A stretch of 64,000 bases of DNA, from contig JAPLTN010000052.1 of the NCBI GenBank assembly GCA_026398135.1, forward strand, positions 1 through 64,000, in the 5' to 3' direction. A program made the position numbers and the translations under genes. Below, piece after piece: positions 2,053 through 50,008 of this stretch. How positions within the stretch are numbered: position 1 is the stretch's first letter; every line of letters starts with the position of its first letter. Source of the stretch: Verrucomicrobiota bacterium (lineage in GTDB: Bacteria > Verrucomicrobiota > Verrucomicrobiia > Opitutales > Opitutaceae). The notes beneath the pieces are model-generated. The model did not search any database, was not told the origin of the DNA, and saw nothing but the letters and a program-made list of their open reading frames with translations.

Positions 2053-5000
2053 TTAGGTCGCCCGGACGCGGCGGCGGCGGAAAACGGCAAACACGGTCAG
2101 GCCGCCGAGGCCGAGCAGGCCGTAGGTGGCGGGCTCGGGCACGGGGGTGATCTGGTAGTAGTTGCTATCGTAATTCTGCCATTTGGCGGTGCCGGGGTAG
2201 CCGTCGAAGATGACGCGGGAGAGCTGGGTATCGTCGAAGGTGGCTTTTTCGACCAAGAGGAAATCCGTGAACTCGAGCCAGTTGGTGATGGTGAGCAGGG
2301 AGTTGGCGTCCACCGATAGGTATTTGAGATAGAGGAAGGTGGGGGAACAGACCGAGCCGCCGCCGAAATCGAGCACGCTGTTGCCGGTGATGGTGAGGGT
2401 GTCGAAGGTTTCCATGCGGGAGGCGTCGCCGACGCTGACCGCGCCGTTGAGCTCGAAGCGGGCGACGTTGGCGGCGTTGCCGACTTCGCCGCCGCGCAGG
2501 GTGACGGTGGCGGTGTCGGCGATTTGTTCGTTGGCGGCGAGTTTCAGGGTGTCGATGCCGCGTCCGTCGCCGACGGTGATGTTGCCCGCGATGGCGGTGA
2601 CGCCGCCGGATTTGGCGAGGGCGAGGGTGCCGGCGTTGACGGTGGTGGTGCCGGTGAGGGTGTTGGCGGTGGTGCCGGAGAGCGTGAGTGTTTCCGTGCC
2701 GGATTTGGTGAGGCCGCCGGTGCCGGTGAGGGTGGAATTGATGGTGGAGCCGCCGGTGTTGTAGGCGTGGACGATGAGTTCGTTGGCGTTGCCGGTGGTG
2801 AGGGTGCCGCCGGATAGGGTGGCGACGGTGGAGCCGGTGGTGAGCAGGCCGCCGGATTGAAGGGTAACGGTGAAACCGGCTTGGGCGATATCGATGCCGG
2901 AGGCGAGTTTGAGCGAGTTGATGGTGCGGTCGGCGGTGAGGGTCTGGTCGGTGGCGGGTGCGGCGTTGTCGGCGGTGGCGGTCCAACCGGTCTGGGCGCC
3001 GGTGTCGTAGCCGGTGTAGGCGACGATGCTGGAGCCGCTCAGGGTGGCGAAGTCCGCTGAATTTACCGTGCCATAAGCGAGGATGCCGTCATCGAGGGCG
3101 GGAGCGCTGGTAAAGGCAAGGCGGGGGGTGTTGCCGGTGCCGTAAGTGCCGTTGGTCTGGGTGGTGTTGACGAAGTCGATGGTCGCGCCGGCGGAGCGGG
3201 AGAGGGAGGCGGAGGTAAGGGTGGTGCTGCGGCCCGAGCGATTGTTGACGACGTCGAGGGTATTGGCACCGCTGCCGAGGGTAATGGTGCCAATTGTCTC
3301 CGCGGTGCTGTTGTTGTCGGTCCGGCCCCAGAAGGCCAGGGTGCCGCCTTGGAGGTTTATGCCGGTGGAGTTACCGATGCGGCTGGTATTGTTGCCGCCG
3401 CCGGTGGCGGAGGAGTGGGTGCCGGCGTTGTCGAGGGTCAGGGTGCCGCCGGAAGTGACGGTAAAACCGGTGACGGAGGTCATGGTTCCTGCGCTGGTAT
3501 TGAGACGCAGTTCCGCGCCGCGGACTTCGACGGTTCCGGCGAGGGAATTATTGGCTACGCTGGAATCGAGTCGGCCGTTGCCGGTCACGATGAGGCTGCC
3601 GTTGGACAAGGCTTGGGTTAGGCGGGCCTCGGCGCGGGTGGAGACGGCGGCGCTGTCGATCACTTGGATGGTGCGGGTGCCTGCGCCGAGGTTTATCGCG
3701 GTATCGAACTGGAGCGTGCCGGCGGCGCTGGTGGAGCCCAGGATGAGGGTGCCGCCATCCGCGACGAAGCCGCTGGTGGTGCCCCAAGTGACGGCGGTGG
3801 CGCTGTTGTTGAGGCGCAGGCGTGGGTCGGCGCTTTCGGCGGCGAAACCGCCGGAGCCGGTCCACTGGACTTGATTGGCACCGGTGCCGAGGGTGGGGCC
3901 GAGGTTGGTGTTTATCTCGCGCACGCCGCCGTTGAGTTGGAGGTTGGAGTTGGCGGAGAGGTTGCCGCGCAGGGCGCCGGCGCGGATCTCGGTGGCGCCG
4001 GTGTAGTTGTTGGCGCCGGTAAGGTTGAGGGTGCCGGTGCCGGTTTTGATGAGGCCGCCGACGCCGGTGTCGGTGAGGTTGCCGGAGAGGGTGGCGTCGA
4101 TGGCGGCGGAGCCGTTGGCGACGCGGAATTCGCGTTGGCCGCCGTTGAGGTCGATGGCGTTTTGGAAGGTGAGGGTGTTGTCGGAAACGTCGGAGGAGAG
4201 GAGCAGGGCCTGGTTGTCGCCGAGGAAGCTGGCGGTGGAGTTCCAGGTGAGGGCGGTGCCGCCGCCGAGGTTGACGTTGCGGGCGGCACCAAAGGCGGAG
4301 AAGCCGCCGTCGGAGGTGAACTGGACTTGGCCGGCGCCAGTGCCGAGGGCGGCGGTGTAGTTGGCGGCACCGAGTTCGAGCACGCCGCCGGCGAGTTGCA
4401 CGTTGGTCGAGGCGGATAGAGCGGAGGCGTTGGCGAGGCGCAGTTCGCCCTCGTTGATGATAGTCGCTCCGGTGTAGGTGTTGGCTGCGCCAAGGACGAC
4501 GGTGCCGGCGCCGACTTTGGCGAGGCTGCGGGCTCCGCCGGTTTCGCTGATGACGCCGTTGAGGGAGAGGCTGCCATCGCGGGAGCCCACGGCGGAGTTG
4601 GAGGCGAGCACGACGGTGCCGGCGAAGGTGTTGGCGCCGCCGTCGTTGTGGAGGGCACCGGCAAGCTCGCCGGTGCTGCGGGTGATGCCGCTGCCGTTGA
4701 GCGTGATCGTCTCGTTGGCGGTGTAGTTGACGTCGTTGCGGAAGGCGAGGGTGGCACCGGAGGCTACGGTGGTGGTGCCGGTGGTATCGCCGAGGGCGCC
4801 GGCGGCGGTGACAACGAGCATGCCTTGGTTTACGGTGACATTGCCGGACCAAGTTCCCGAGTTGTCGTTGTTTATCGTCGTTATGCCGGCACCGTTTTTG
4901 AACAGGTCGCCGGTGCCGGAGATATCGCCGTTAAAGTTGACCGCGCCGAAGCCTGAGACGGTGATGTCTTTGCCGTTGGTCCCGGTGGTGCCGTTAATGC

Positions 5001-6402
5001 AGAGGGTCGAGTAGGAGAAGTTGCGGATGGCGAGGTCTTCAACGAGGGCGAGGTCGGTGTTGATTTTGTGCCGGGCGTAGGCGCCGTTGTAGTCGTTGAC
5101 GTTGATGGAGGGCAGGCCCGCCTGGGCGGTGTCGCCGAGGGTGATAACCTTGCCGTCGCCCACGGTACCGATGGAGTAATTGATGCTTGAATCGAAGGTC
5201 ATGTTACGCACTTCGATGTTGTTCGCGAGGGTGACGGCTTGGGTGTTGTTGGTGCCGTTGTTGGTCGGCTTGTTACCGAAAAGCACGTCGGAGTCGCGCA
5301 GAGGGGTTTTGTTGTCGTCGGCGGAGACGGAGGAGTACCAGTTGGAGTTGGCTTCGCCGCCGGCGGTGGAGCCCCATGCGGTGGTGCCGGCGCCGTTGTC
5401 CCATTCGTAGGCACCGGAGCCGGTGGACCAAGGGGTGGTGGTGACACTCAGGTTGCGGATTTCGTGGATCTCGTTGGATCCGCCGGTGGACGCGGTGAAA
5501 CCTATTTTCAGGGTGTCGGGACGTGCGTAGCCGGACAGGTCGGCGGTGAAGGCGGTGATGTAGCTGGCGCTGGCCCCGAACTTCATCTCGACGGTCAGTT
5601 GATTATTGGCGTCGATGACGAGTTTGAAGGAGCGGTAGTCCGCGCCGGTTTGATCGGGGCGGGTGGTATACGAAGGGAAGTCCATCTGACCGCCGCCGGA
5701 GAGGGTTTCGAGCGGAGCGGAGGAGGCGATGTAATCGTAACCGGTTTGGCCGGAACCGGGGCCGCGCACGGCGATCCGATTGGGCAGGAGAGTGGCGTCG
5801 TTGTCGCCTAATTGGCCACCGTTGCGGCCTTCGCTACCGTTGGAGTAGTTGCCGAAGTTATCGAAGCCGACACCCAAGTATCCGCCGACCATGCCGTCTG
5901 CGCCGGTACGGTTGGCGTAACCGAGGGAGCCGCCGTAGGCACCCGGGGTGAAAGAGGCGGCATTGACGCTGCCGTCGACGAGGAAAAAAGTAATGCCGTC
6001 GGCTCCGGAGCCATTGTGGAACGCGTAGTCCATCGTGACCTCAAGCCGCGCGTTTACGGAAAAAACCTGGTTATCGAGCAGTGCGGCAGTGGATTGGTTG
6101 CCGGTGTTGGTGTTGAGGCGCAGCCAGCCGGTGCCGGGCGTATCGATGGTGGTGGCGGTTAAGACGGGCAGGGTATCGCCAGGCGCGGCGTAAAAATTCC
6201 ATCCCGAGGCGGTGGTCCCGGTGAAGTTTTCGGTAAAGTTTATTTGAGCCAGCGCTGAGCTGAACAAAAGCGCGGTGCATCCGGAAAAAAGGGTGGCCGC
6301 CCGGTGAGGTGAGCGGGCTAATTTAGCTGCAAACGAAACTGGAAGGAGCAGACGCACGTTGAAGGGGTGCCCGTAACATGACGTTTTACACTGGCGCTGC
6401 AA
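2053..6402 (-). CDS. Giant PEP-CTERM surface protein: L-type-lectin-like domain plus autotransporter-associated beta-strand repeats
   Basis: A predicted exported, surface-anchored protein of up to 1449 aa. The N-terminus has a hydrophobic signal segment ending near ALA-Q (about residue 52). Residues ~53-325 resemble a bacterial L-type (legume-like) lectin domain (motifs FHNGSGADGITFFLVDG and YLGVGFDNFGNYS). Residues ~480-1300 hold at least five autotransporter-associated beta-strand repeats of the form G(A/T)GTxxLxGANxYTGxTxIxxGxL. The last 29 residues are a PEP-CTERM signal: VPEPATYG, a hydrophobic stretch, then FRRRR, expected to be processed by an exosortase not present in this window. There is no C-terminal beta-barrel, so it is not a true type V autotransporter. 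The frame opens at TTG 6402; GTG 6357 is an alternative start. Neither has a clear Shine-Dalgarno, so the start is uncertain. Confidence 0.88.
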   Translation of the reverse strand: MQRQCKTSCYGHPFNVRLLLPVSFAAKLARSPHRAATLFSGCTALLFSSALAQINFTENFTGTTASGWNFYAAPGDTLPVLTATTIDTPGTGWLRLNTNTGNQSTAALLDNQVFSVNARLEVTMDYAFHNGSGADGITFFLVDGSVNAASFTPGAYGGSLGYANRTGADGMVGGYLGVGFDNFGNYSNGSEGRNGGQLGDNDATLLPNRIAVRGPGSGQTGYDYIASSAPLETLSGGGQMDFPSYTTRPDQTGADYRSFKLVIDANNQLTVEMKFGASASYITAFTADLSGYARPDTLKIGFTASTGGSNEIHEIRNLSVTTTPWSTGSGAYEWDNGAGTTAWGSTAGGEANSNWYSSVSADDNKTPLRDSDVLFGNKPTNNGTNNTQAVTLANNIEVRNMTFDSSINYSIGTVGDGKVITLGDTAQAGLPSINVNDYNGAYARHKINTDLALVEDLAIRNFSYSTLCINGTTGTNGKDITVSGFGAVNFNGDISGTGDLFKNGAGITTINNDNSGTWSGNVTVNQGMLVVTAAGALGDTTGTTTVASGATLAFRNDVNYTANETITLNGSGITRSTGELAGALHNDGGANTFAGTVVLASNSAVGSRDGSLSLNGVISETGGARSLAKVGAGTVVLGAANTYTGATIINEGELRLANASALSASTNVQLAGGVLELGAANYTAALGTGAGQVQFTSDGGFSAFGAARNVNLGGGTALTWNSTASFLGDNQALLLSSDVSDNTLTFQNAIDLNGGQREFRVANGSAAIDATLSGNLTDTGVGGLIKTGTGTLNLTGANNYTGATEIRAGALRGNLSANSNLQLNGGVREINTNLGPTLGTGANQVQWTGSGGFAAESADPRLRLNNSATAVTWGTTSGFVADGGTLILGSTSAAGTLQFDTAINLGAGTRTIQVIDSAAVSTRAEARLTQALSNGSLIVTGNGRLDSSVANNSLAGTVEVRGAELRLNTSAGTMTSVTGFTVTSGGTLTLDNAGTHSSATGGGNNTSRIGNSTGINLQGGTLAFWGRTDNNSTAETIGTITLGSGANTLDVVNNRSGRSTTLTSASLSRSAGATIDFVNTTQTNGTYGTGNTPRLAFTSAPALDDGILAYGTVNSADFATLSGSSIVAYTGYDTGAQTGWTATADNAAPATDQTLTADRTINSLKLASGIDIAQAGFTVTLQSGGLLTTGSTVATLSGGTLTTGNANELIVHAYNTGGSTINSTLTGTGGLTKSGTETLTLSGTTANTLTGTTTVNAGTLALAKSGGVTAIAGNITVGDGRGIDTLKLAANEQIADTATVTLRGGEVGNAANVARFELNGAVSVGDASRMETFDTLTITGNSVLDFGGGSVCSPTFLYLKYLSVDANSLLTITNWLEFTDFLLVEKATFDDTQLSRVIFDGYPGTAKWQNYDSNYYQITPVPEPATYGLLGLGGLTVFAVFRRRRVRAT

Positions 6403-6577
6403 TACCGGGAACGGAGTTGCGTAGTACTACTCCAAGCCTGCATTTACGGTCCATAACGGTGATGTGAAACCTGCGGACTTCATTTATCGCCCCGAATCAT
6501 AACAGCTAGCCGCGCCGTTTGCCCGGGGTTTGGAGCGTGGCCTTGCTTGCGGCCGGACGGTGGCGCAAGGCTGGGGC

Positions 6578-7291
6578 ATGCATCCGACCCGCGAAGGCTC
6601 CATCCGCCTCTTTCGATTTCAAGGTATTGAAGTGTTTCTGCACTGGTCGTGGTTCGCGGTGGCCTTTTACACGCTCTCGCAGCGCAACCAGGAGTATGCC
6701 TCGGTTTACTGGAACGTGGCGGAATACCTCAGCCTTTTTCTCATCGTGCTGCTGCACGAGTTCGGCCATTCGCTGGCCTGTCGTTCGACCGGGGGCAGTG
6801 CCGAGCAAATCGTGCTTTGGCCTTTGGGCGGAGTGGCTTACGTGGCCCCGCCGCAGCGACCGGGGGCGCAGTTATGGAGCATAGCGGCCGGCCCGCTGGT
6901 GAATGTGGTGCTCGCTCCGTTTCTGTTCGGGGCCTTGTGGTGGGCGGGAAATGCCCAGGTCTCACCCGATTTTTACGCGTGGTTGAGCACCATCAATATG
7001 ATCAACGCCGTGATTTTGGGTTTTAATCTCCTGCCGGTTTACCCGCTCGATGGCGGGCAAATCCTGCGTTCGCTGCTTTGGTATTTCATGGGACCGGCCA
7101 GCAGCCTGCTCGTCGCGACCGTCATCGGTTTTTTGGGCGGGCTGGGTTTCGTCGCTTACGGTGTGTTCGAGGGCTCGATGTGGACGGTGGTCATGGCCGC
7201 GTTTCTCCTGTTCAACTGTTACCGTTCTTTCGTGTTCGCACGACAGCTCCGTCGGCATCTGGCCGCCCAGCCGGTAACGGTGGACGTGTAA
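6578..7291 (+). CDS. M50 (site-2 protease) family membrane metalloprotease
   Basis: A polytopic membrane zinc protease of 237 aa. The zinc motif is HEFGH (H60, E61, H64), and the third-ligand motif NLLPVYPLDGG lies at about residues 150-160; both sit in hydrophobic segments, as in S2P-like M50B proteins. Short single-domain members like this lack PDZ and CBS domains, and their substrates are mostly unknown; release of membrane-bound regulators is the usual role. The frame extends upstream to a TTG at 6530, but the ATG at 6578 starts at the conserved N-terminus and follows an AAGG at 6567-6570. It is divergent from the PEP-CTERM gene and 43 bp upstream of the AAA ATPase gene. Confidence 0.88.
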   Translation: MHPTREGSIRLFRFQGIEVFLHWSWFAVAFYTLSQRNQEYASVYWNVAEYLSLFLIVLLHEFGHSLACRSTGGSAEQIVLWPLGGVAYVAPPQRPGAQLWSIAAGPLVNVVLAPFLFGALWWAGNAQVSPDFYAWLSTINMINAVILGFNLLPVYPLDGGQILRSLLWYFMGPASSLLVATVIGFLGGLGFVAYGVFEGSMWTVVMAAFLLFNCYRSFVFARQLRRHLAAQPVTVDV

Positions 7292-7334
7292 CTCTCCGCT
7301 CGCCGCCGATCAGTCGGCAAACCAAGCTGCGGGT

Positions 7335-8342
7335 GTGATCGCTTCCGTCGCCTTTCGGAATTTCAAAGCCCTGCGTTCCGCCCGCATCGAGCTGGGGCCG
7401 TTTAACCTCGTGATCGGACCGAACGGTTCGGGCAAAACGAGTTTGATCCAGGCGCTCTTGCAGCTGCGAGGGCTGGCGCGTCTGCCCTTGCGCGAACCGG
7501 TGGCGGAGGCGGAGCGTTTGCCGGAGTCGGCGGAGATCACGTTTGGCTTCCATGCACCGTATGACGGCTTGGAGGCGCAACTGGCCTGCGCGGGCGAGGC
7601 ACAGTGCGATTTGTTACAGGTGCTTCCCTTGCCACGAGGCGAGGGGCGCGATGACTGGGCGGGGCTGCGCGCACGGCTGCTGACGATTCGCACCTACCTT
7701 TTCGATGCGGCGGCCATCGCACAGGCCGTGTATCCGGTGACTTCCGGCGAGCTGGCGGCCAACGGAGCCAATCTCGCCGCGCGGCTGGCGGGCTTGCAGG
7801 CGCGGGCACCGGTCGCCTACGCGGGTTTGCAAAGCGAGCTGCTGAGTTTGTTTCCCGAATACGCGGCCTTGGAACTTCAGCCGGCGACGGGGAGTTTTGC
7901 GTTGAGACTGGCCGACCCGGAGGAGCCGGTGCTCGTGCCGGCGGACGAACTGTCGCAGGGCACCCTGACCACGCTGGCTTTGCTGGCTTTGGCGCACGAC
8001 CCGGCGCCTCCCGCCTTCGTATGCATCGAGGAACTGGATCGCGGGCTGCACCCGAGATTATTGCGCGGCGTGCGGGATGTGCTTTACCGCCTCAGTTTCC
8101 CGGCGGATTACGGCCACGACCGCCCGCCGACGCAGGTCATCGTGACGACGCATTCGCCGCATTTGCTGGATCTGTTTCGCGATCATCCCGAGGAAGTCAT
8201 CATCGCGGACAAAGTGGGCCGCGCGGCGACGTTTATGCGGCTCTCGGATCGTGCGGATCTGGTCGACTTGCTCGCGGAGGGCGGGTCGCTCGGCGATTTG
8301 TGGTATTCGGGCATCTTGGGAGGCGTTCCGGAGGCGTCATGA
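7335..8342 (+). CDS. AAA/ABC-type ATPase (RecF/OLD-like, AAA_21 type)
   Basis: A 335-aa soluble ATPase of the RecF/SMC/OLD superfamily. It has Walker A GPNGSGKT (residues 28-35), a signature-like LSQGT ahead of Walker B, Walker B FVCIEELD (about 228-235, with tandem Glu), and a switch segment VTTHSPHLLD. This layout is typical of the ATPases of two-gene systems that pair with a nuclease. The start is GTG at 7335. Its stop overlaps the next gene by 4 bp (ATGA at 8339-8342), so the two are translationally coupled and probably act together. Neighbours are unrelated housekeeping genes. An anti-phage or DNA-repair role is inference; no specific family name can be assigned by eye. Confidence 0.85.
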   Translation: MIASVAFRNFKALRSARIELGPFNLVIGPNGSGKTSLIQALLQLRGLARLPLREPVAEAERLPESAEITFGFHAPYDGLEAQLACAGEAQCDLLQVLPLPRGEGRDDWAGLRARLLTIRTYLFDAAAIAQAVYPVTSGELAANGANLAARLAGLQARAPVAYAGLQSELLSLFPEYAALELQPATGSFALRLADPEEPVLVPADELSQGTLTTLALLALAHDPAPPAFVCIEELDRGLHPRLLRGVRDVLYRLSFPADYGHDRPPTQVIVTTHSPHLLDLFRDHPEEVIIADKVGRAATFMRLSDRADLVDLLAEGGSLGDLWYSGILGGVPEAS

Positions 8343-8995
8343 GCGGGCGACCCTTGCGTCTGGCCTTGCTGGGCGAGTCCCTGGTGGACGAGGCGGCGCT
8401 GGGGATTTTGGTCGAGGCGGTGCTGGGCGCGCCCTTTGTGCAGGTGCAGCCCAATTTGCGCGCGCGCGGTTGGCCGTCGGTGCTGCAAATCCTGCCGGCC
8501 ATCGTGCGGCATTTGCATTTTAACACCGACGCCGACGGGCTGGTGGTGTTGGTGGATTCGGACGATACGGAGCCGCATCCGGCGGAGCACGAGGTGGCGG
8601 GCTATTTTCACCCGCGCTGCCGGCTCTGCCAGCTGCGGGCGACGTTTCGGAGGGCGACCAAAACCCTGCCGCCCGCTCACGGGCGCAGCCGGGTATTGCG
8701 CGCCATCGGTCTGGCGGTGCCGGCGGCCGAGGCATGGTATCTTTGCGGCTTGGAGGACGCGGTGAGCGAGGCGGCATGGCGGGAGGGGCGGACGAAGGGG
8801 CGGGCGCCCTACACCCGGCGTGAGCTCAAGGCGCGGGTTTATGGCACGGAGCGGCCGAATTTGCAGCAAGCGGTGGGGCACGCTTCGGCCGCGGCGAAGC
8901 GGCATGCGCGGGATCTGCGGCGGTTGGAGTATGATTTTCCCGGATTTGCGGCGCTGGCGGTGGATCTGCGGGAGCTGGCGCGAGTAAACGGTTGA
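8339..8995 (+). CDS. Hypothetical TOPRIM-like protein, partner of the upstream ATPase
   Basis: A 218-aa protein coupled to the ATPase gene by an ATGA overlap. Its N-terminus follows a TOPRIM-like pattern: a beta strand ending in an acidic residue (LALLGES, E13) and, about 60 residues on, a hydrophobic strand ending in an acidic cluster (LVVLVDSDD, D73, D75, D76). A CRLC pair near residues 95-98 could bind metal. The C-terminal half is basic and helical. Small TOPRIM-like proteins (DUF4276, DUF4435/AriB) are known partners of RecF/OLD-type ATPases in defence systems. Assignment here rests on pattern and context only. The larger open frame beginning inside the ATPase gene at 8021 is not used; the coupled ATG at 8339 is. 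Confidence 0.75.
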   Translation: MSGRPLRLALLGESLVDEAALGILVEAVLGAPFVQVQPNLRARGWPSVLQILPAIVRHLHFNTDADGLVVLVDSDDTEPHPAEHEVAGYFHPRCRLCQLRATFRRATKTLPPAHGRSRVLRAIGLAVPAAEAWYLCGLEDAVSEAAWREGRTKGRAPYTRRELKARVYGTERPNLQQAVGHASAAAKRHARDLRRLEYDFPGFAALAVDLRELARVNG

Positions 8996-9027
8996 TGTAA
9001 GATTAAAGTTCCGGCGCGTTTACGTAC

Positions 9028-11262
9028 ATGCCTGCTCAATATCTGCCTTCGATCATCGCCGCGCCGGTGCGTTTGTTGGTGCGCTGTCTTTATCGTATAA
9101 AAGTGCTGGGGGCCGAGCGTCTGCCCGAGGGCGGGGCGCTCTTGCTGGCCAACCATCTTTCCTACGCGGACGTGGCGGTGTTGCAGGTGGCGTGTCCGCG
9201 CCCGATCCGGTTCGTGGGTTATGCGGAGCTGCCGCGCACCTCGTGGTTTTTTCGTTTGGCCTTTAACCTTTCGGGCACGATTCCCGTCTCGCCCAGCAAT
9301 GCGTTGGAGGCGACCCGGCGGGTGGCCGAGAGTCTGCAACGCGGCGAATACGTGCTCCTGTTTCCCGAAGGTTCGATCTCGCGCACGGGGCAGTTGATGA
9401 AGATTCAGCGTGGCTTTGAGCTGATGGCGCGGCGGGCCGGGGTGCCGGTGGTGCCGGTGGCGCACGACGGGCTTTGGGGCTCGGTGTTTTCGTTTTCGGA
9501 CAACACCTATTTATTCAAATATCCACGGGTGCGGCGGACCCATGTGTGCGTGGCTTGGGGTGAGCCCATCGCGGCGAAGGACGCGACTACGGCGGCGGTT
9601 CGGCAGGCGTTGTTGGATCTCGGGTATCAGGCGTTTACCGAGCGCCCGCAGTTGCGGCGTCACTTGGGGCGCGAGCTGGTGCGGCGGCTGGCGCGGCGGC
9701 CCGGGCATTTGGAGTTTGTGGATCGCACGGCGGGACGAAAGCCGCTGAGCGCGGGCGAGCTTTTGGCGGCGGCGGCGGCTTTGTCGCGCCACCTGCGGCG
9801 CAAGGTGGCGGCGCGGCGGATCGGCGTGGTGCTGCCTCCAGGCGCGGGGGCGACCATTGTAAATCTCGCGGCGGTGTGCGCGGGAAAGGTGCCGGTGAAT
9901 CTCAACTTTACCGCCGGGCGGGCCGCGCTGGAGTCTAGCCTGCGGGTGGCGGAGATTGATACGGTGATCACGGCGAAGGCGATGCAGGCGAAGTTGCCGA
10001 ATTTCCCCTGGCCGGAACGCACCCTGGATTTGCAAACCGAGATGACCGCGCTGGGCGGGAAACGGGCGCTGTTGCCCTGGCTGGTGGCGGCGTGGGTGGT
10101 TCCGAATCAGTGGATCGCGGACTGGCTGGGTTTGCCCAAATACGGCGACCGCGAGGAGGCGGGTTTGATTTTCACCAGCGGAAGTTCAGGCGAACCGAAG
10201 GGCGTGGTGTTGAGCCACCGGAATATTTTGGCGAATTGCTGGCAGGTGGCGTCGCTCTCCATCCTGCCGGAATCGGCCATCATGCTGGCGTGCCTGCCGA
10301 TGTTTCACAGCTTCGGATTTACGGTCACGCTGTGGTATCCGATGTTGCGCGGGTGCCGGGTGGTGAGTGTGCCGAGCCCGCTGGAAACGGGGAAAATCGT
10401 GGAGGCGATTCGCGAGGAAAAAGTGTCGGTGTTCGTGGGAGCGCCAACCTTTCTGCGGCCGGTGATTCGCAAGGCGACGTCCGCTGATTTGCGCACGCTG
10501 GCAGTGGTGGTTTCAGGGGCGGAAAAACTGCCGATGGATCTCTACGAAACCTACCTCGACAAGTTTAACATCGAGATCATGCAGGGTTACGGACTCACCG
10601 AGACTTCGCCGGTGGCCAATGTGAACCAGCCCGACCCGGCGATTCCGACCCCAACGGCGGAGCGTCAGGCGGGGCGGCGGCGCGGCACGGTGGGCCGCAT
10701 GATGCCCGGCATGACCGTGCGCATCCTGAATCCCGATACCAAGGCGGAGATGGCGGCGGGCGAGACCGGCATCGTGGTTTTTAAGGGCGATAATATTTTC
10801 CCGGGCTATCTAAAGGATGAGGCGAAGACGGCGGCGGCGTTTCATGACGGCTGGTTCGTCACGGGGGACTTGGGACGCTTCGATGAGGACGGGTTTTTGA
10901 TCATTGAGGGGCGGCTGTCGCGCTTCTCCAAGATAGGCGGCGAGATGGTGCCGCATGGCACGGTGGAAGCGCGCATCGTCGAGGCGTTTGGGTGCGATGA
11001 GAGCGACGGCTACGCGGCGGTGGTGATGGGGGTGCCGGACGCGACCAAGGGCGAGCAGTTGGTTTTGTTGACCACGCGGGACGAGCTGACGGCGGAGGCG
11101 GTGCGGGAGAAGTTGTCCGGCCTTGGCTTGCCGAATCTGTGGATTCCCAAGCTGGTGCATCGCGTGGCCAGGATTCCGGTGTTGGGCACGGGCAAGCTCG
11201 ATCTCAAGGCGGCGAAGGAAATGGCGCTGGCGGCGGCCGAACCGGGAGCGTCCAAGGCCTGA
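9028..11262 (+). CDS. aas: Bifunctional acyltransferase / acyl-ACP synthetase (Aas-like)
   Basis: A 744-aa fusion. The N-terminal domain is a PlsC-type acyltransferase with HX4D motif NHLSYAD (H43, D48) and the glycerolipid-binding motif FPEGS (residues 112-116). The C-terminal domain is an adenylate-forming ligase with P-loop FTSGSSGEPKG (from about residue 382), motif GYGLTETSP and the WFVTGDLGR motif. E. coli Aas (719 aa) has the same order and re-acylates lyso-phosphatidylethanolamine using acyl-ACP made in situ. The LplT flippase that often accompanies or is fused to Aas is absent here. It probably recycles membrane lysophospholipid at the inner leaflet. Start is the ATG at 9028; three bases separate its stop from the next start. 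Confidence 0.88.
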   Translation: MPAQYLPSIIAAPVRLLVRCLYRIKVLGAERLPEGGALLLANHLSYADVAVLQVACPRPIRFVGYAELPRTSWFFRLAFNLSGTIPVSPSNALEATRRVAESLQRGEYVLLFPEGSISRTGQLMKIQRGFELMARRAGVPVVPVAHDGLWGSVFSFSDNTYLFKYPRVRRTHVCVAWGEPIAAKDATTAAVRQALLDLGYQAFTERPQLRRHLGRELVRRLARRPGHLEFVDRTAGRKPLSAGELLAAAAALSRHLRRKVAARRIGVVLPPGAGATIVNLAAVCAGKVPVNLNFTAGRAALESSLRVAEIDTVITAKAMQAKLPNFPWPERTLDLQTEMTALGGKRALLPWLVAAWVVPNQWIADWLGLPKYGDREEAGLIFTSGSSGEPKGVVLSHRNILANCWQVASLSILPESAIMLACLPMFHSFGFTVTLWYPMLRGCRVVSVPSPLETGKIVEAIREEKVSVFVGAPTFLRPVIRKATSADLRTLAVVVSGAEKLPMDLYETYLDKFNIEIMQGYGLTETSPVANVNQPDPAIPTPTAERQAGRRRGTVGRMMPGMTVRILNPDTKAEMAAGETGIVVFKGDNIFPGYLKDEAKTAAAFHDGWFVTGDLGRFDEDGFLIIEGRLSRFSKIGGEMVPHGTVEARIVEAFGCDESDGYAAVVMGVPDATKGEQLVLLTTRDELTAEAVREKLSGLGLPNLWIPKLVHRVARIPVLGTGKLDLKAAKEMALAAAEPGASKA

Positions 11263-13947: not shown

Positions 13948-15126
13948 TCACGCCATTCCCAATCGGGTGGCCCAACGGGGCAGGTTCGTGATCCCCACCA
14001 CTTCGATCACGTCGTCGATTCGGTAATCCTGTGATCCTGGATAAACAACCACCAGCTGCCTGAGCCCGAGGGTTTCGATTGCGGCCGTCATGGACCGAGT
14101 GCGCCGCGGCGCATCCTCGGACTTGAACTCGACGCCCACCAATCCCTGTGACAGCCGGAGCACGAGATCGACTTCGGCTCCTCCCTGTACCGACCAGGTG
14201 AAACACTGGTCCTCGCGCAGGTGCAGGAGCGCGACGATTTGCTCGATGCCGAAACCCTCCCAGGAAGCGCCGATTTGCGATGAAGAGTAGAGCTGGCCCC
14301 GATCACGAACGAGCAAGAGTGCATGGAGCAATCCCGTGTCCCGGAGATAGAGCTTGGGCGCCTTCCGCAGCCGCTTGCCGGAGTTCTCGAAATAGGGCGG
14401 CAGCTCGCGCACGAGGTAGGCGCCCTTGAACAACTCGACATGCCTTTGCACCGTCTTCGCGTTCACCCCGATCACTCCGGCCACCTCGGAATGATTCCAA
14501 TACTGCCCATGGTGATGCGCCAGCATTTGGAAGAAGCGCCTCAACTGCTCCTGGCTCAAGCGGGTCTCCGCCAAGGAGGGTAAATCGCGTCCTAGAAACA
14601 GCGCTATGTAATGATGCCTCCGCTCGAGCGAAGTCTCCTCCATCGCCGTAAGATAATGAGCGGGATAACCACCCCTCAGCCATAGCCGCTCCCAGTTTTC
14701 CGGCCCCACCTCCGCCAGCGAAAAGCCGCTCAAATCCAGCAAACGCGCCCGGCCGGCCAGACTTTCCGAGGCTTCGCGATAGATGTGCGGCGACGCGCTG
14801 CCCGTCAGAATAAAGCGGGTATGTCGCTCCGCCCTATCCGCCAGCACGCGCAGCTTGCGAAACAGCTCCGGTTTTTCCTGCGCCTCGTCGATCACCACGA
14901 CGCCCTCCAACCCGTCGAGCACCCGGTAATTGCTCTCCTCCAGACGCACCTGATCCACGAAGTTTTGCAGGTCAAAATAGTGCTCCGGCGAAGTGGCCAT
15001 TGGGCGCGTCAACCACGTCTTTCCCGCTTGGCGCGGGCCAAGAACGACCGTGACCACCCACTCGGCCAGGCCGGCTCTGATACGAGTGGTTATTTCAGGA
15101 CGCGGAACGAGATTGACAGGCTCCAT
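13948..15126 (-). CDS. AAA_14 / DUF4143 ATP-binding protein
   Basis: A 392-aa protein with a P-loop ATPase domain (Walker A GPRQAGKT at residues 30-37; Walker B VVVIDEAQ with D80, E81; sensor motif LTGSAS) followed by a C-terminal DUF4143 domain, which carries a winged helix and a nuclease-like fold (GGAEVDLVLR). These proteins are common in accessory regions and have no settled function; some have been proposed to act in DNA metabolism or toxin-like systems. The start is the ATG at 15126. It is divergent from the nuclease-STAND gene with only 41 bp between them, so a shared promoter region is likely. Confidence 0.9.
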   Translation of the reverse strand: MEPVNLVPRPEITTRIRAGLAEWVVTVVLGPRQAGKTWLTRPMATSPEHYFDLQNFVDQVRLEESNYRVLDGLEGVVVIDEAQEKPELFRKLRVLADRAERHTRFILTGSASPHIYREASESLAGRARLLDLSGFSLAEVGPENWERLWLRGGYPAHYLTAMEETSLERRHHYIALFLGRDLPSLAETRLSQEQLRRFFQMLAHHHGQYWNHSEVAGVIGVNAKTVQRHVELFKGAYLVRELPPYFENSGKRLRKAPKLYLRDTGLLHALLLVRDRGQLYSSSQIGASWEGFGIEQIVALLHLREDQCFTWSVQGGAEVDLVLRLSQGLVGVEFKSEDAPRRTRSMTAAIETLGLRQLVVVYPGSQDYRIDDVIEVVGITNLPRWATRLGMA

Positions 15127-47275: not shown

Positions 47276-47483
47276 GCAGTAGGCGGTGTGACAGCTCGTA
47301 GGTCCGCGGCGTACTGGCGCGAGGTGTGCTGCCGAGTATCATGGGCAAATTGTATCCATGTAACACCCCGACCCCTTTTGCCCCGCCTTTTTTCAGGCGG
47401 CCCTTTTCAAGAAAGTTGCTAAGTCATAAAATATGCTTGCTCCAGGTTGACACATGCGTGCACTTAAAATTTCAAGTGCTAAA

Positions 47484-48113
47484 ATGACCATCATTAACAT
47501 TATAAATAAAATCAAGCAATTCGTTGGAATCGCTCTAATTATGGCGCCTGCAGCGGGCGAATTAAATGCTGGGGTGATGAGCGTGCCGGGGTTTGATAAC
47601 TGGAACGTAAATGCACCCAAAGTATATATGGATGCACCCAATCGGAGGGGGAGTATTTATGTTAGGACCGCCCCACCTGCTGGAATACCTGTAATAAATA
47701 ATATAGTAGTAAACGTGATGGCGCATTACAGATACCAAAGTCGCCACTTTCCCTACGCCACTTCTATACGGCAGACCCGAACCATAACATTTCAATTCAA
47801 CAATCTCATCATTAATCCTGTCCAGGAACAGTTTTTGCGAGTTCCAGGCAGGGATGATGAGGATATTATAGTCATGCCCAACTATATATTTCAGCGAGTT
47901 CGTTTAAATCTCCAGCGAGGTGTTGGTTATAATGCGATGCCCCCATTAGTTCGATCTCTCACAGCTGAACAAGCGATTGCTGTTGATACACTTAGAATAG
48001 TAAGGCTTTGGGAAACTAGAGATGGTGAGTTGCGCAGATTACACACAATACCTGATTTTATTTTTAATAATAATGGTAGTTTATTTAAACCCTTCCCTTT
48101 TCCTCTTAAGTAG
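47484..48113 (+). CDS. Hypothetical secreted protein 1 of the AT-rich island
   Basis: Not recognised. The 209-aa protein begins MTIINIINKIKQFVGIALIM and has an N-terminal hydrophobic segment with a probable signal-peptide cleavage after AAG or LNAG. It is beta-rich with repeated aromatic residues (YRYQSRHFPY, QFNNLIINP). Base composition and codon use are strikingly AT-rich against the GC-rich genome, which suggests recent acquisition. The start could instead be ATG 47454. Its N-terminus MTIIN matches that of the opposed hypothetical gene at 49079, so the two may be related. Confidence 0.65.
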   Translation: MTIINIINKIKQFVGIALIMAPAAGELNAGVMSVPGFDNWNVNAPKVYMDAPNRRGSIYVRTAPPAGIPVINNIVVNVMAHYRYQSRHFPYATSIRQTRTITFQFNNLIINPVQEQFLRVPGRDDEDIIVMPNYIFQRVRLNLQRGVGYNAMPPLVRSLTAEQAIAVDTLRIVRLWETRDGELRRLHTIPDFIFNNNGSLFKPFPFPLK

Positions 48114-48330: not shown

Positions 48331-49010
48331 CTAGGCCACCCCAGGCTTGGCTAAGATGAACACCGGGGCGCGGCCTTCAGTGTCGGCGATGGCGCCGCAC
48401 AGGAAGACCTCGGTGCGCAGGGTGGCCGGGCGGCGATAGGTCTGGTTCGGCCGGGCGGCGGTCTGCTACAACAACAGCAGGTTGAAGAGCAGGAGCATGG
48501 AGCGGAACGCCGCCTCGGTGGCGTAAAATTCGCGGCGGCAAAAGTCGTCCACCCCAAGTCGCCTTTGTGTTCGTCGATGCGCTGCTCAAGAGTGGCGCGT
48601 TGGTTGCAGTCGCGTCAGATGACTTCCGGGGCCTCGCTGCGGTTGGTCACAAAGCCCCGGCAGGTGTAGCCGGGGACATCGATCAGCTTGCGGCCCACTG
48701 CGGCCCGGCCTTCGCGCACGCGTTCGCGGATGACCTCGAAGCGACGTTCGCAGGACCAGCCCGCCAGTTGGGCGGAAACCTCGCCGGCCTCGACATGCTC
48801 GTCGATCTTGCGACACTGGCAGGAACCGGCGGCGCAGCGTTTGAGGGTGCTGGTCAGGCGGGCCACCACGACATAAGACAACGTCCGTCCTTCCAAAAAC
48901 TCCAGCAGCTTGCCGTCGAAAAAGTCGCTGCCGGCCCGTACCCCGCGCAAGCGCCAGCCTTCGGGCAACAGGGTCAGCGCCTCGGTAAGGAACTCGACCA
49001 CGCCGTGCCC
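48331..49010 (-). pseudogene. Degraded IS1380-family transposase (C-terminal part)
   Basis: A minus-strand reading from about 49010 to the TAG at 48331 resembles the C-terminal part of IS1380-type transposases: VVEFLTEALTLLPEGWRLRGVR, FDGKLLEFLEGRTLSYVVVARL, RRFEVIRERV, GYTCRGFVTNRSEAPEVI, then NQRATLEQRIDE and AAFRSMLLLFNLLLL. It is broken by a TGA at 48615-48617 where a Trp codon is expected, a one-base deletion near 48552, and a TAG at 48466-48468. The N-terminal half is missing. It sits between two AT-rich genes and is GC-rich itself. Confidence 0.75.
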
Positions 49011-49078
49011 TGCTTAGAGAGAGTACGGACATCGTTGGCTCGCTCCCATTAGGTTTGGTCACATAGAAAATTTCAGTT

Positions 49079-49651
49079 TCAAGGCGCGTCGTTTTTAAGT
49101 ACAGATTTTTTAGCGACACAGTATAAGCAACGGCCAGTTATGTTGATTTTTAGCTTTGGTCTATATGTACTTAATCGTCTGTCGGGATAAATATCGAACC
49201 TAGATTGTGCAGTATTAATGTTATAATTAGTAGAAGACACTGTACTTACTGCCACCCGATCTAGCGTATAACCCAAGCGAGAATTACGTTGAAATGTATT
49301 ATCAAAACCAACTGGAACAGGTATTTCAAAAGTAGGAGGAATACTCGTAGGTCCAGTGGTTACAGGATACCATGCAGTAGCCGTTATGTAAAAAGAATGT
49401 CGAGTTTCAGTGTTTTGAAAAAAGTAACGAGCTCGTAGATTAACACTTACTACTGATGGTCTTTGTGTTATGACGGTAATTTCAACATGATTGTCGCCAC
49501 CAATTAGACCGGCATAATCAATAGAGACTACAGGGAGTGAAGGAGTTCCTCTATTAGGTGCAATCCCGCTGCTATCCGCATTTGAAGCTGAGCTCCAAAA
49601 AGCAAAAAAGAATAAAACCAAGTATGTGCGGTATTTGTTTATTATTGTCAT
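49079..49651 (-). CDS. Hypothetical secreted protein 2 of the AT-rich island
   Basis: Not recognised. The 190-aa protein begins MTIINKYRTYLVLFFFAFW, with a clear signal peptide probably cleaved after NADS or SNA. It is beta-rich (SVNLRARYFF, FYITATAWYPV) and has one CLYC pair near the C-terminus. Codon use is AT-rich. The frame lies opposite the transposase remnant and shares the MTIIN start with the gene at 47484. ATG 49651. Confidence 0.65.
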   Translation of the reverse strand: MTIINKYRTYLVLFFFAFWSSASNADSSGIAPNRGTPSLPVVSIDYAGLIGGDNHVEITVITQRPSVVSVNLRARYFFQNTETRHSFYITATAWYPVTTGPTSIPPTFEIPVPVGFDNTFQRNSRLGYTLDRVAVSTVSSTNYNINTAQSRFDIYPDRRLSTYRPKLKINITGRCLYCVAKKSVLKNDAP

Positions 49652-49777
49652 AATATACGAAAACGGGGAGACGCTTTTAGATTGGTTTTGTTTTTAAAAT
49701 TATAGTAATTTTCGTTAACCGAAGAAGTTCTACTTATAGGGAACTGGATTTTGCCGGGGATCGGGCCGGTAGGGGTT

Positions 49778-50008
49778 TTATACCATTTCGCATTCTGTAA
49801 TATAAAACAATACTCTTGATCTCTTCGAGTATCACTCCGTTTTTATACCAAATCCCCGATGAATTTTGACTTTGGCCCAATGTAGGCCCGACCGGTGGTC
49901 GGGCTTTTCCCGGAGACCCCGATCACCGGTCGGGCTTACACCAAGCGATGCATAAGTCTAAAACCAAAGGGGTAATGGTATTATACGTTTGAAAGTGAAA
50001 TGGTATCA
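49778..50008. mobile_element. MITE-like element with terminal inverted repeats
   Basis: The ends TTATACCATTTCGC (49778-49791) and, inverted, TGATACCATTTCAC (49995-50008) match at 12 of 14 positions and enclose about 230 bp without a gene. The right end belongs to the same repeat as 114-143. No target-site duplication could be confirmed. Confidence 0.5.
49881..49940. repeat. Internal inverted repeat (CCCGACCGGTG family)
   Basis: TGTAGGCCCGACCGGTG (49881-49897) pairs with CACCGGTCGGGCTTACA (49924-49940) at 16 of 17 positions with a 26-bp loop. It lies inside the MITE-like element. Confidence 0.7.

What the first reader, a model, noticed from the sequence alone, without database searches (positions are those of the whole stretch)
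7335..8995. Coupled AAA ATPase plus TOPRIM-like protein: candidate two-gene defence system
An RecF/OLD-like ATPase and a small protein with a TOPRIM-like acidic pattern (E13, then D73/D75/D76) overlap by ATGA. This architecture is that of ATPase-nuclease immune pairs (OLD/Gabija-like, PARIS-like), but the partner matches no family I can name. It could be a new member or a known DUF4276-type pair.
Basis: partly seen in the sequence, partly recalled or inferred. Interest (0 to 1): 0.6.

Follow-up and report, generated by a model that had tools for sequence, protein, structure and literature searches.

The report
Resident ATPase-nuclease gene pair in Opitutaceae
Two overlapping genes, an ATPase and a probable Toprim-type nuclease, look like an antiviral system but appear to be passed down mainly vertically within one family of Verrucomicrobia, which suggests a fixed role rather than a mobile defence cassette.

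Summary
In detail: an OLD-type ABC ATPase (7335-8342) and a 218-residue protein (8339-8995) overlap by ATGA. The partner is a probable Toprim nuclease: the AlphaFold model puts E13 after strand 1 and D73-x-D75-D76 after strand 3; D17, E131 and K164 complete an OLD-like two-metal set by order only. The solved-structure match (OLD Toprim, Z 8.0) barely exceeds background. By profile its first 137 residues are remotely related to DUF4276/HEC-01B. An invariant H-x3-H-x6-H-x2-C-R-x-C segment, inserted relative to HEC-01B, follows the DxDD (57 of 57 rows). The mobile-defence reading is not supported: the partner is in 114 of 171 family genomes, nearly always single copy; in a 387-genome phylum draw all 27 clear hits are in this family; the partner has no plasmid, phage or viral-contig match; gene order is largely kept; most strongly supported tree splits agree with rpoB. 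The same genome carries a true HEC-01 pair, a patchily distributed family, elsewhere. Best reading: an ATPase-gated nuclease of OLD/HEC-01 kind resident in the Opitutaceae chromosome, dispensable (missing in a third), under purifying selection. Maintenance or resident immunity remains open.

The parts
7335..8342 (+). OLD/SMC-type ABC ATPase, 335 aa, GTG start
   Evidence: AAA_21 1.4e-28; PADLOC HEC-01A 6.1e-40; AF2 pLDDT 91.4; solved folds PtuA Z 18.3, AriA 16.2, TsOLD 15.8, PtuA Foldseek 2.2e-12; 57-row alignment A2
7416..7442 (+). Walker A GPNGSGKTS (residues 28-36)
   Evidence: G28, S32, G33, K34, S36 invariant in 57 rows
7953..7964 (+). ABC signature-like SQGT (residues 207-210)
   Evidence: Q208 and G209 invariant
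8019..8033 (+). Walker B VCIEE (residues 229-233)
   Evidence: C230 and E232 invariant, E233 nearly invariant
8151..8153 (+). H-loop histidine H273
   Evidence: nearly invariant
8339..8342 (+). ATGA stop/start overlap
   Evidence: sequence; 30 of 40 named loci keep -4
8339..8995 (+). Toprim-like metal-dependent nuclease candidate, 218 aa, remote DUF4276/HEC-01B relative in residues 5-137
   Evidence: AF2 pLDDT 90.1, pTM 0.87, beta-alpha order with E13 and DxDD at strand ends; VIA: OLD Toprim 6njv Z 8.0, tied with 2p62; hhalign to HEC-01B with shuffle control
8375..8392 (+). acidic cluster E13-S14-x-x-D17-E18 (metal ligands by analogy with OLD E400/E404)
   Evidence: 56 of 57 rows each, one row gapped; PMC6755086 passages
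8555..8566 (+). D73-S-D75-D76 (DxD motif at end of strand 3)
   Evidence: D73, D75, D76 in 57 of 57 rows
8576..8629 (+). H80-x3-H84-x6-H91-x2-C94-R-x-C97, candidate second metal (zinc) site just after DxDD; an insertion relative to HEC-01B
   Evidence: 57 of 57 rows, and read in seven more partners (G027, G043, G046, G050, G157, G149; G034 with a 4-residue shorter spacer), none of them more than 80% identical to any of the 57; gap in the HEC-01B alignment; absent in the divergent paralogue L108
8729..8731 (+). E131 of the EAWYL motif at the start of the helix after strand 4 (OLD E508 analogue by order)
   Evidence: 57 of 57 rows; aligned with EAW of HEC-01B
8828..8830 (+). K164 (OLD K562 analogue by order)
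   Evidence: 57 of 57 rows
6530..7291 (+). upstream neighbour, M50 peptidase, 43 bases before the ATPase (not part of the pair)
   Evidence: Pfam Peptidase_M50 6.6e-17; seen only in own-genus loci and their named copies
9028..11262 (+). downstream neighbour, acyltransferase plus AMP-binding protein (syntenic flank, not part of the pair)
   Evidence: Pfam AMP-binding 5.6e-65 and Acyltransferase 3.9e-25; found in 31 of 40 named loci

Best explanation
The two genes make an ATPase-gated nuclease. The 335-residue OLD-type ABC ATPase dimerises or oligomerises on ATP through its Walker A/signature/Walker B/H-loop set and holds or positions the 218-residue partner. The partner is a two-metal Toprim hydrolase (E13, D17, D73, D75, E131, K164) that nicks or cuts nucleic acid when the ATPase changes state; an extra His/Cys metal knuckle probably shapes substrate choice or partner docking. 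Shown here: both ORFs, their tight coupling, conserved residues, predicted folds, a distant relation of the Toprim half to HEC-01B/DUF4276, and mainly vertical single-copy residence in one family. Inferred: complex formation, nuclease activity, zinc, ancestry in the OLD/HEC-01 conflict repertoire. I think it now serves a fixed, non-essential function of the Opitutaceae chromosome, more likely genome maintenance or a stress response than a mobile antiphage cassette.
For: Co-occurrence: partner in 114 (E <= 1e-3) and ATPase in 115 (E <= 1e-30) of 171 family genomes, 113 with both by comparing the two listings; two of the three odd ones (G156, G220) have the ATPase running off a contig end. Active-site conservation. 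Toprim element order at pLDDT 90. HEC-01B relation: hhalign score 47.7 against a best of 21.2 in 100 column shuffles, covering window residues 5-137 with E13, DxDD and EAW in register. Family restriction: 27 clear hits of 387 phylum genomes, all in this family, 9 family genomes listed without one. No match for the partner on plasmids, phages or viral contigs or for the ATPase on plasmids. Acyltransferase gene downstream in 31 of 40 loci. Pair tree shares 9 of 19 splits with rpoB against a permutation maximum of 3, and 5 of 6 splits with support of 95 or more are in the rpoB tree. dN/dS at or below 0.17. Contrast: a true HEC-01 pair in the same genome (L116) belongs to a family hit in 18 of 387 genomes over 17 genera, five of them weakly. 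Published parallel: Cran1, an OLD ATPase-nickase vertically inherited in Sulfolobales with a cell-cycle role and no detected antiviral effect (PMC12796447; abstract and sections 7, 11, 16 read).
Against: The partner is missing in 57 of 171 family genomes, including same-genus relatives, so the function is not essential; that also suits resident immunity. Over all 22 genomes distances follow rpoB (r 0.70 and 0.58, 0 of 2000 permutations), but outside the own genus only weakly (15 genomes: partner r 0.27, reached by 79 of 2000; ATPase r 0.17, by 294 of 2000). One strongly supported conflict with rpoB, around G015, whose pair also lies about 6 kb from the acyltransferase, suggests a transfer. G157 has the partner but no ATPase found nearby. 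In only one of five same-genus comparisons is the pair the sole difference at the site. The solved-fold match of the partner is weak: Foldseek best is a riboflavin synthase at 1.4e-3; VIA Z 8.0 for OLD Toprim is tied with 2p62, and an Argonaute-type MID domain scores 7.6. The C-terminal 80 residues, K164 included, do not align with HEC-01B locally. No experiment exists; no model of the complex was made.
Confidence: 0.55

Rival explanations
1. Resident core immunity: the pair is an antiphage system, biochemically the same ATPase-gated nuclease, that became fixed early in Opitutaceae and is inherited mainly vertically, with frequent loss when its cost outweighs its use.
For: Relatives by profile or fold (HEC-01A, AriA, PtuA, Old) are known or candidate defence proteins; partner missing in 57 of 171 genomes; flanking genes adjacent where it is missing in 3 of 5 comparisons; one likely transfer.
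Against: No match for the partner on plasmids, phages or viral contigs or for the ATPase on plasmids; neighbour ORFs scanned, 71 of 168, gave only matches I judge generic; purifying selection.
Confidence: 0.35
2. The partner is not a nuclease but another Toprim-like or Rossmann-like metalloenzyme (for example a phosphohydrolase) working with the ATPase in an envelope or lipid role suggested by the acyltransferase and, in other genera, efflux and membrane-anchored neighbours.
For: Frequent neighbours are envelope or lipid genes; the fold search is not decisive.
Against: ATPase is of the OLD/SMC/Rad50 class; full OLD-like acidic set plus lysine by order; upstream neighbours change between genera while the pair stays.
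Confidence: 0.07
3. A mobile two-gene defence system of PARIS or Gabija type, as first proposed.
For: Two-gene ATPase-Toprim layout and ATGA coupling.
Against: No AriB model among the PADLOC matches of the 57 partners, no helicase next to the pair in the window, mainly vertical, family-limited distribution.
Confidence: 0.03

Closest known systems
HEC-01 (PADLOC candidate system: AAA_21 ATPase + DUF4276 protein)
   Same: Two genes in the same order, overlapping or a few bases apart in most HEC-01B loci read; ATPase matches HEC-01A 6.1e-40; the partner's residues 5-137 align by profile with the E, DxDD and EAW motifs in register.
   Different: The window partner's only PADLOC hit is HEC-01B at E 0.02; best of 57 members 2.2e-4. 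Shorter ATPase (335 aa versus 391-437 in the HEC-01 loci read). Lacks the C-terminal N-x-S-x-S-F seen in most of the 14 HEC-01B proteins. Has the inserted His/Cys segment. Family-wide instead of patchy.
PARIS (AriA/AriB), the split Class 4 OLD system
   Same: Separate OLD ATPase and Toprim genes (layout from PMC10568477 and PMC12409363 passages); AriA fold Z 16.2; AriA profile 3.9e-29.
   Different: No AriB profile hit; not found on mobile elements; trigger biology not testable here.
Cran1 (Class 5 OLD, Sulfolobales; PMC12796447)
   Same: Vertically inherited in one clade, OLD-type ATPase with nuclease, unusual for defence genes.
   Different: Archaeal; one protein with ATPase and nuclease domains; its gene could not be deleted, whereas this pair is often absent.
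Class 2 OLD nucleases (BpOLD, XccOLD; PMC6755086, passages)
   Same: Same order of catalytic residues: E, E/D at +4, DxD, E in the helix after the Toprim sheet, K in the helical part; VIA Z 7.7 and 8.0.
   Different: One polypeptide with the ATPase, helicase neighbour; no His/Cys segment mentioned in the passages read.
Septu / retron PtuA
   Same: Best solved-structure match of the ATPase (Z 18.3, Foldseek 2.2e-12).
   Different: PtuB is an HNH nuclease; the partner here has no HNH match.

Membership tests
Toprim fold | E at the end of strand 1 and DxD at the end of strand 3 in a beta-alpha sandwich | tested here: met
   AF2 DSSP: strand 7-12 then E13; strand 67-73 then D73-x-D75-D76; strand 121-127; 56-57 of 57 rows
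Toprim fold | clear structural match to a solved Toprim domain | tested here: inconclusive
   OLD Toprim 6njv Z 8.0, rmsd 4.1, 155 aligned; tied with 2p62 Z 8.0; MID domain 7.6 and lumazine synthase 7.0 close behind
OLD/HEC-01A ATPase | AAA_21/AAA_15 ABC ATPase with Walker A, signature, Walker B, H-loop | tested here: met
HEC-01B / DUF4276 | sequence match above the curated Pfam cut-off (PF14103, 30.2 bits) | tested here: not met
   no Pfam family for the window protein and no DUF4276 among the 9 families matched by the 57 members; two true HEC-01B proteins score 27.7 and 31.6 bits
HEC-01B / DUF4276 | profile-level homology | tested here: met
   hhalign probability 90.4, score 47.7, 0 of 100 column shuffles as high, reversed 15.5; Toprim half only, residues 5-137
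PARIS | AriB-type Toprim partner | tested here: not met
   no AriB model among the 10 PADLOC families matched by the 57 members at E up to 1
Gabija | UvrD-like helicase gene (GajB) next to the ATPase-Toprim protein | tested here: not met
   window neighbours are an M50 peptidase and an acyltransferase/AMP-binding protein
Septu (PtuAB) | HNH partner | tested here: not met
   no HNH match in Pfam at E up to 1
RecF/RecR | being the genome's RecF and RecR | tested here: not met
   own genome carries separate recF (C88) and recR (C38), each family found in 27 of 29 relatives
Mobile antiphage system | patchy distribution, occurrence on mobile elements or in defence islands | tested here: not met
Two-metal Toprim nuclease | metal-dependent cleavage of nucleic acid | not testable with these tools
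   needs purified protein

The most novel reading that the evidence does not exclude
A bacterial lineage has turned an OLD/HEC-01-type conflict module into resident chromosome or RNA maintenance machinery: a split, clade-specific OLD-like class whose Toprim subunit gained a three-His, two-Cys metal site, a bacterial counterpart to archaeal Cran1.
Probability: 0.35. Interest if true: 0.72.

Novelty: new variant of a known kind. Interest (0 to 1): 0.47.

Why it matters
OLD-type ATPase-Toprim modules are usually filed as defence on sight. This pair gives a bacterial test case where distribution, gene order and trees point to residence rather than mobility, and where a true HEC-01 pair sits in the same genome as a built-in contrast. 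If shown to act on the host's own nucleic acids, it would support the idea that conflict modules are recruited for housekeeping, as reported for Cran1. The invariant His/Cys segment beside a Toprim centre is a further biochemical feature to test.

Tried and rejected
Rejected: PARIS, Gabija, Septu and RecFR membership (see Membership tests). Rejected: defence island. 71 of 168 neighbour ORFs that recur between loci (one or two per cluster) were scanned with PADLOC; 17 models matched at 1e-10: mad3, mad8, BrxH, PsyrT, SngC, DpdF, DpdJ, DrmD, DruE, a type IV restriction model, Cas3g and subtilase. I judge these generic: the Pfam scan shows two DEAD helicases and two ABC transporters among the members, no member matches our ATPase profile, and the four Walker A motifs found are in elongation-factor-like and transporter-like ORFs; the tool did not name which member hit which model.

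Led nowhere: literature searches for DUF4276 (0 papers), HEC-01 with PADLOC (0), other HEC terms, Opitutaceae with defence terms and Opitutaceae/Toprim/OLD/DUF4276 listed no paper that by title and abstract describes this pair; only open PMC papers are held. Rfam: no match in the window. Promoter scan of 6300-9300: none found. Foldseek of the partner against viral models: no match at or below 0.001. Profile search of solved sequences with the partner: best E 1.1.

Weaknesses: phylum scans with the partner scored at most 7 first-look candidates per genome, family scans at most 17 or 12. One search also listed three hits of 33-35 residues at E 0.008-0.009 in another family, which I treat as noise. 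The viral-contig scans work through short peptide patterns. The family carries no name in the genome searches; I call it Opitutaceae from the titles of the 40 named loci. Trees use 22 of the 30 genomes searched for rpoB; dropped were G003 and G012 (no match), G002, G004, G005, G007, G028 (short fragments) and G018 (its pair locus was not among L001-L030). A first run misread rpoB for G015, G049 and G051 and was replaced. The partner alone shares 5 of 19 splits with rpoB, with no strongly supported conflict. Alignment A1 leaves out L001, L008, L055, L070 and identical rows. A first HEC-01B comparison ran in global mode (probability 85.5, whole-length alignment forced); the local one covers only the Toprim half. 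The divergent pair in G003 sits in a genome with 7% contamination and may belong to another organism. Residue mapping to OLD is by order and spacing only.

Full report
Observation. The window holds two overlapping ORFs: an ATPase at 7335-8342 and a 218-residue partner at 8339-8995, joined by ATGA. The ATPase hits AAA_21 (1.4e-28) and PADLOC HEC-01A (6.1e-40); the partner hits nothing in Pfam, NCBIfam or PHROGs and only HEC-01B at E 0.02 in PADLOC. The genome's family is unnamed in the genome searches; the titles of 40 named loci with a close relative point to Opitutaceae, Verrucomicrobia.

Conservation. Relatives of the partner were found in 46 of 95 relatives searched, own genome included, and in 40 named loci, each with the ATPase just upstream. 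In 57 aligned partners D73, D75, D76, E131, K164 and H80, H84, H91, C94, C97 are invariant, and E13, D17, E18 are present in 56 with a gap in one. The His/Cys segment is also readable in seven more partners, at most 79% identical to any of the 57; four of them are only 48-56% identical to the window, and one (G034) has a shorter spacer. The ATPase keeps Walker A, signature, Walker B and H-loop residues. dN/dS against two relatives is 0.168 and 0.161 for the partner, 0.107 and 0.082 for the ATPase.

Fold. AlphaFold2 gives pLDDT 90.1 and pTM 0.87 for the partner, with strand 7-12, helix 15-29, helix 47-62, strand 67-73, helix 95-107, strand 121-127, then a helical part. That is the Toprim order. 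The search against solved structures is only suggestive: OLD Toprim domains (6njv Z 8.0, 155 aligned, rmsd 4.1; 6nk8 Z 7.7) rank second and third, tied with 2p62 (Z 8.0), with a MID domain at 7.6 and lumazine synthase at 7.0; Foldseek prefers a riboflavin synthase at 1.4e-3. The published active site of Class 2 OLD is E400, E404, D455, D457, T506, E508 and K562 (PMC6755086, passages). Ours has E13, D17, D73, D75, E131 and K164 in the same order, with E131 at the start of the helix after strand 4 and alanine at the place of T506; this mapping is inference. The ATPase model (pLDDT 91.4) resembles PtuA (Z 18.3), SMC and Rad50 heads, AriA (16.2) and TsOLD (15.8).

Relation to HEC-01B/DUF4276. The own genome has a clear HEC-01 pair on contig 20 (L116; HEC-01B 7e-87, HEC-01A 2.1e-188). 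BLASTP sees no useful similarity between the two partners and 31% over 192 residues between the ATPases. Profile against profile, the partner family and 14 HEC-01B proteins give a local score of 47.7 (probability 90.4); best of 100 column shuffles 21.2, reversed 15.5. The local alignment covers window residues 5-137 with E13, DxDD and EAW in register and a gap where the His/Cys segment lies, so that segment is an insertion relative to HEC-01B; the last 80 residues are not aligned. A divergent pair in G003 (L108), with partner 35% and ATPase 34% identical, lacks the segment and has DGDG in place of DSDD. Adding it raises the score to 57.4.

Distribution and inheritance. Partner in 114 of 171 family genomes over 32 of 40 genera, single copy but for G003 (divergent second copy) and G201 (two fragments); ATPase in 115 of 171. 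By comparing the listings, 113 have both, G156 and G220 the ATPase alone (at contig ends) and G157 the partner alone. In the phylum draw 27 of 387 genomes have clear hits, all in this family, with 9 further family genomes listed without one. HEC-01B in the same draw: 18 of 387 over 17 genera, five of those genomes with a best hit no better than E 2e-9, and 2 of 57 relatives. The partner has no match in plasmids, phages or viral contigs, nor L108's partner in plasmids or viral contigs, nor the ATPase in plasmids. The downstream acyltransferase/AMP-binding gene is found in 31 of 40 loci; four of the nine without it end inside the partner or within 1.9 kb after it.

Empty sites. In five same-genus comparisons of a carrier and a non-carrier, three non-carriers (g21, g26, g16) have the two flanking genes next to each other. 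In g21 the pair is the only difference; in g26 and g16 the carrier also has about 2.3 kb and 4.3 kb of other sequence between the flanks. The g38 non-carrier has about 3 kb of other sequence, and g2 is not comparable.

Trees. On 22 genomes the pair tree shares 9 of 19 splits with rpoB against a permutation maximum of 3; 5 of 6 strongly supported splits agree and one conflicts, around G015. Distance correlations are strong over all 22 genomes but weak outside the own genus. I read this as mainly vertical inheritance with losses and one likely transfer.

Context. Frequent neighbours are lipid, efflux, transport and other ordinary genes; PADLOC matches among 71 of 168 neighbour ORFs look generic. 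Separate recF and recR genes exist (27 of 29 relatives each), so the pair is not the RecFR module.

Interpretation. The biochemical model, an ATPase-gated two-metal Toprim nuclease, rests on conserved residues, predicted fold and family relation; it is not shown. For the role, residence and vertical descent resemble Cran1, whose authors started from the same kind of argument and found a cell-cycle role (PMC12796447, abstract and sections 7, 11 and 16). But the pair is absent from a third of the family, so a dispensable role, including resident immunity, is a close rival. I give 0.55 to resident nuclease machinery with a maintenance or stress role, 0.35 to resident immunity, 0.07 to a non-nuclease role and 0.03 to the mobile defence reading.

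Novelty. New variant of a known kind: OLD/HEC-01-like, but outside the Pfam DUF4276 cut-off and only weakly hit by PADLOC HEC-01B models, with an inserted His/Cys segment and a family-wide, mainly vertical distribution. My searches of the held papers listed no description of it.

Noticed in passing
G000 contig 20, L116:5573-7516 (+): The same genome has a true HEC-01 pair (AAA_21 ATPase plus DUF4276/HEC-01B, PADLOC 2.1e-188 and 7e-87). From reading the ORFs only, the neighbours look like cell-shape genes upstream and a sigma-factor-like gene downstream.
   Followed up: partly
L108:8247-9935 (-), G003 contig 56: A second, divergent pair (34-35% identical) without the His/Cys segment and with DGDG in place of DSDD; the contig may be contamination.
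   Followed up: partly
window 2053-6402 (-): Large secreted-looking repeat protein ending in a PEP-CTERM-like sorting signal (label recalled, not tested).
   Followed up: no
window 49001-50000: G+C falls to 0.41 against about 0.56-0.60 in the flanking kilobases and about 0.63 in most of the window; ORFs nearby (47454-48113 +, 49079-49651 -) look like small secreted proteins; possibly acquired DNA.
   Followed up: no
G027 and G043 ATPase genes: ATPase match flagged with one internal TGA while the partner match has none; decay or assembly error.
   Followed up: no
G157 contig 168, L198: Partner gene without a detectable ATPase upstream, the one clear exception to the pairing.
   Followed up: partly
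window 13948-15126 (-): AAA_14/DUF4143 ATPase right after a subtilase gene.
   Followed up: no
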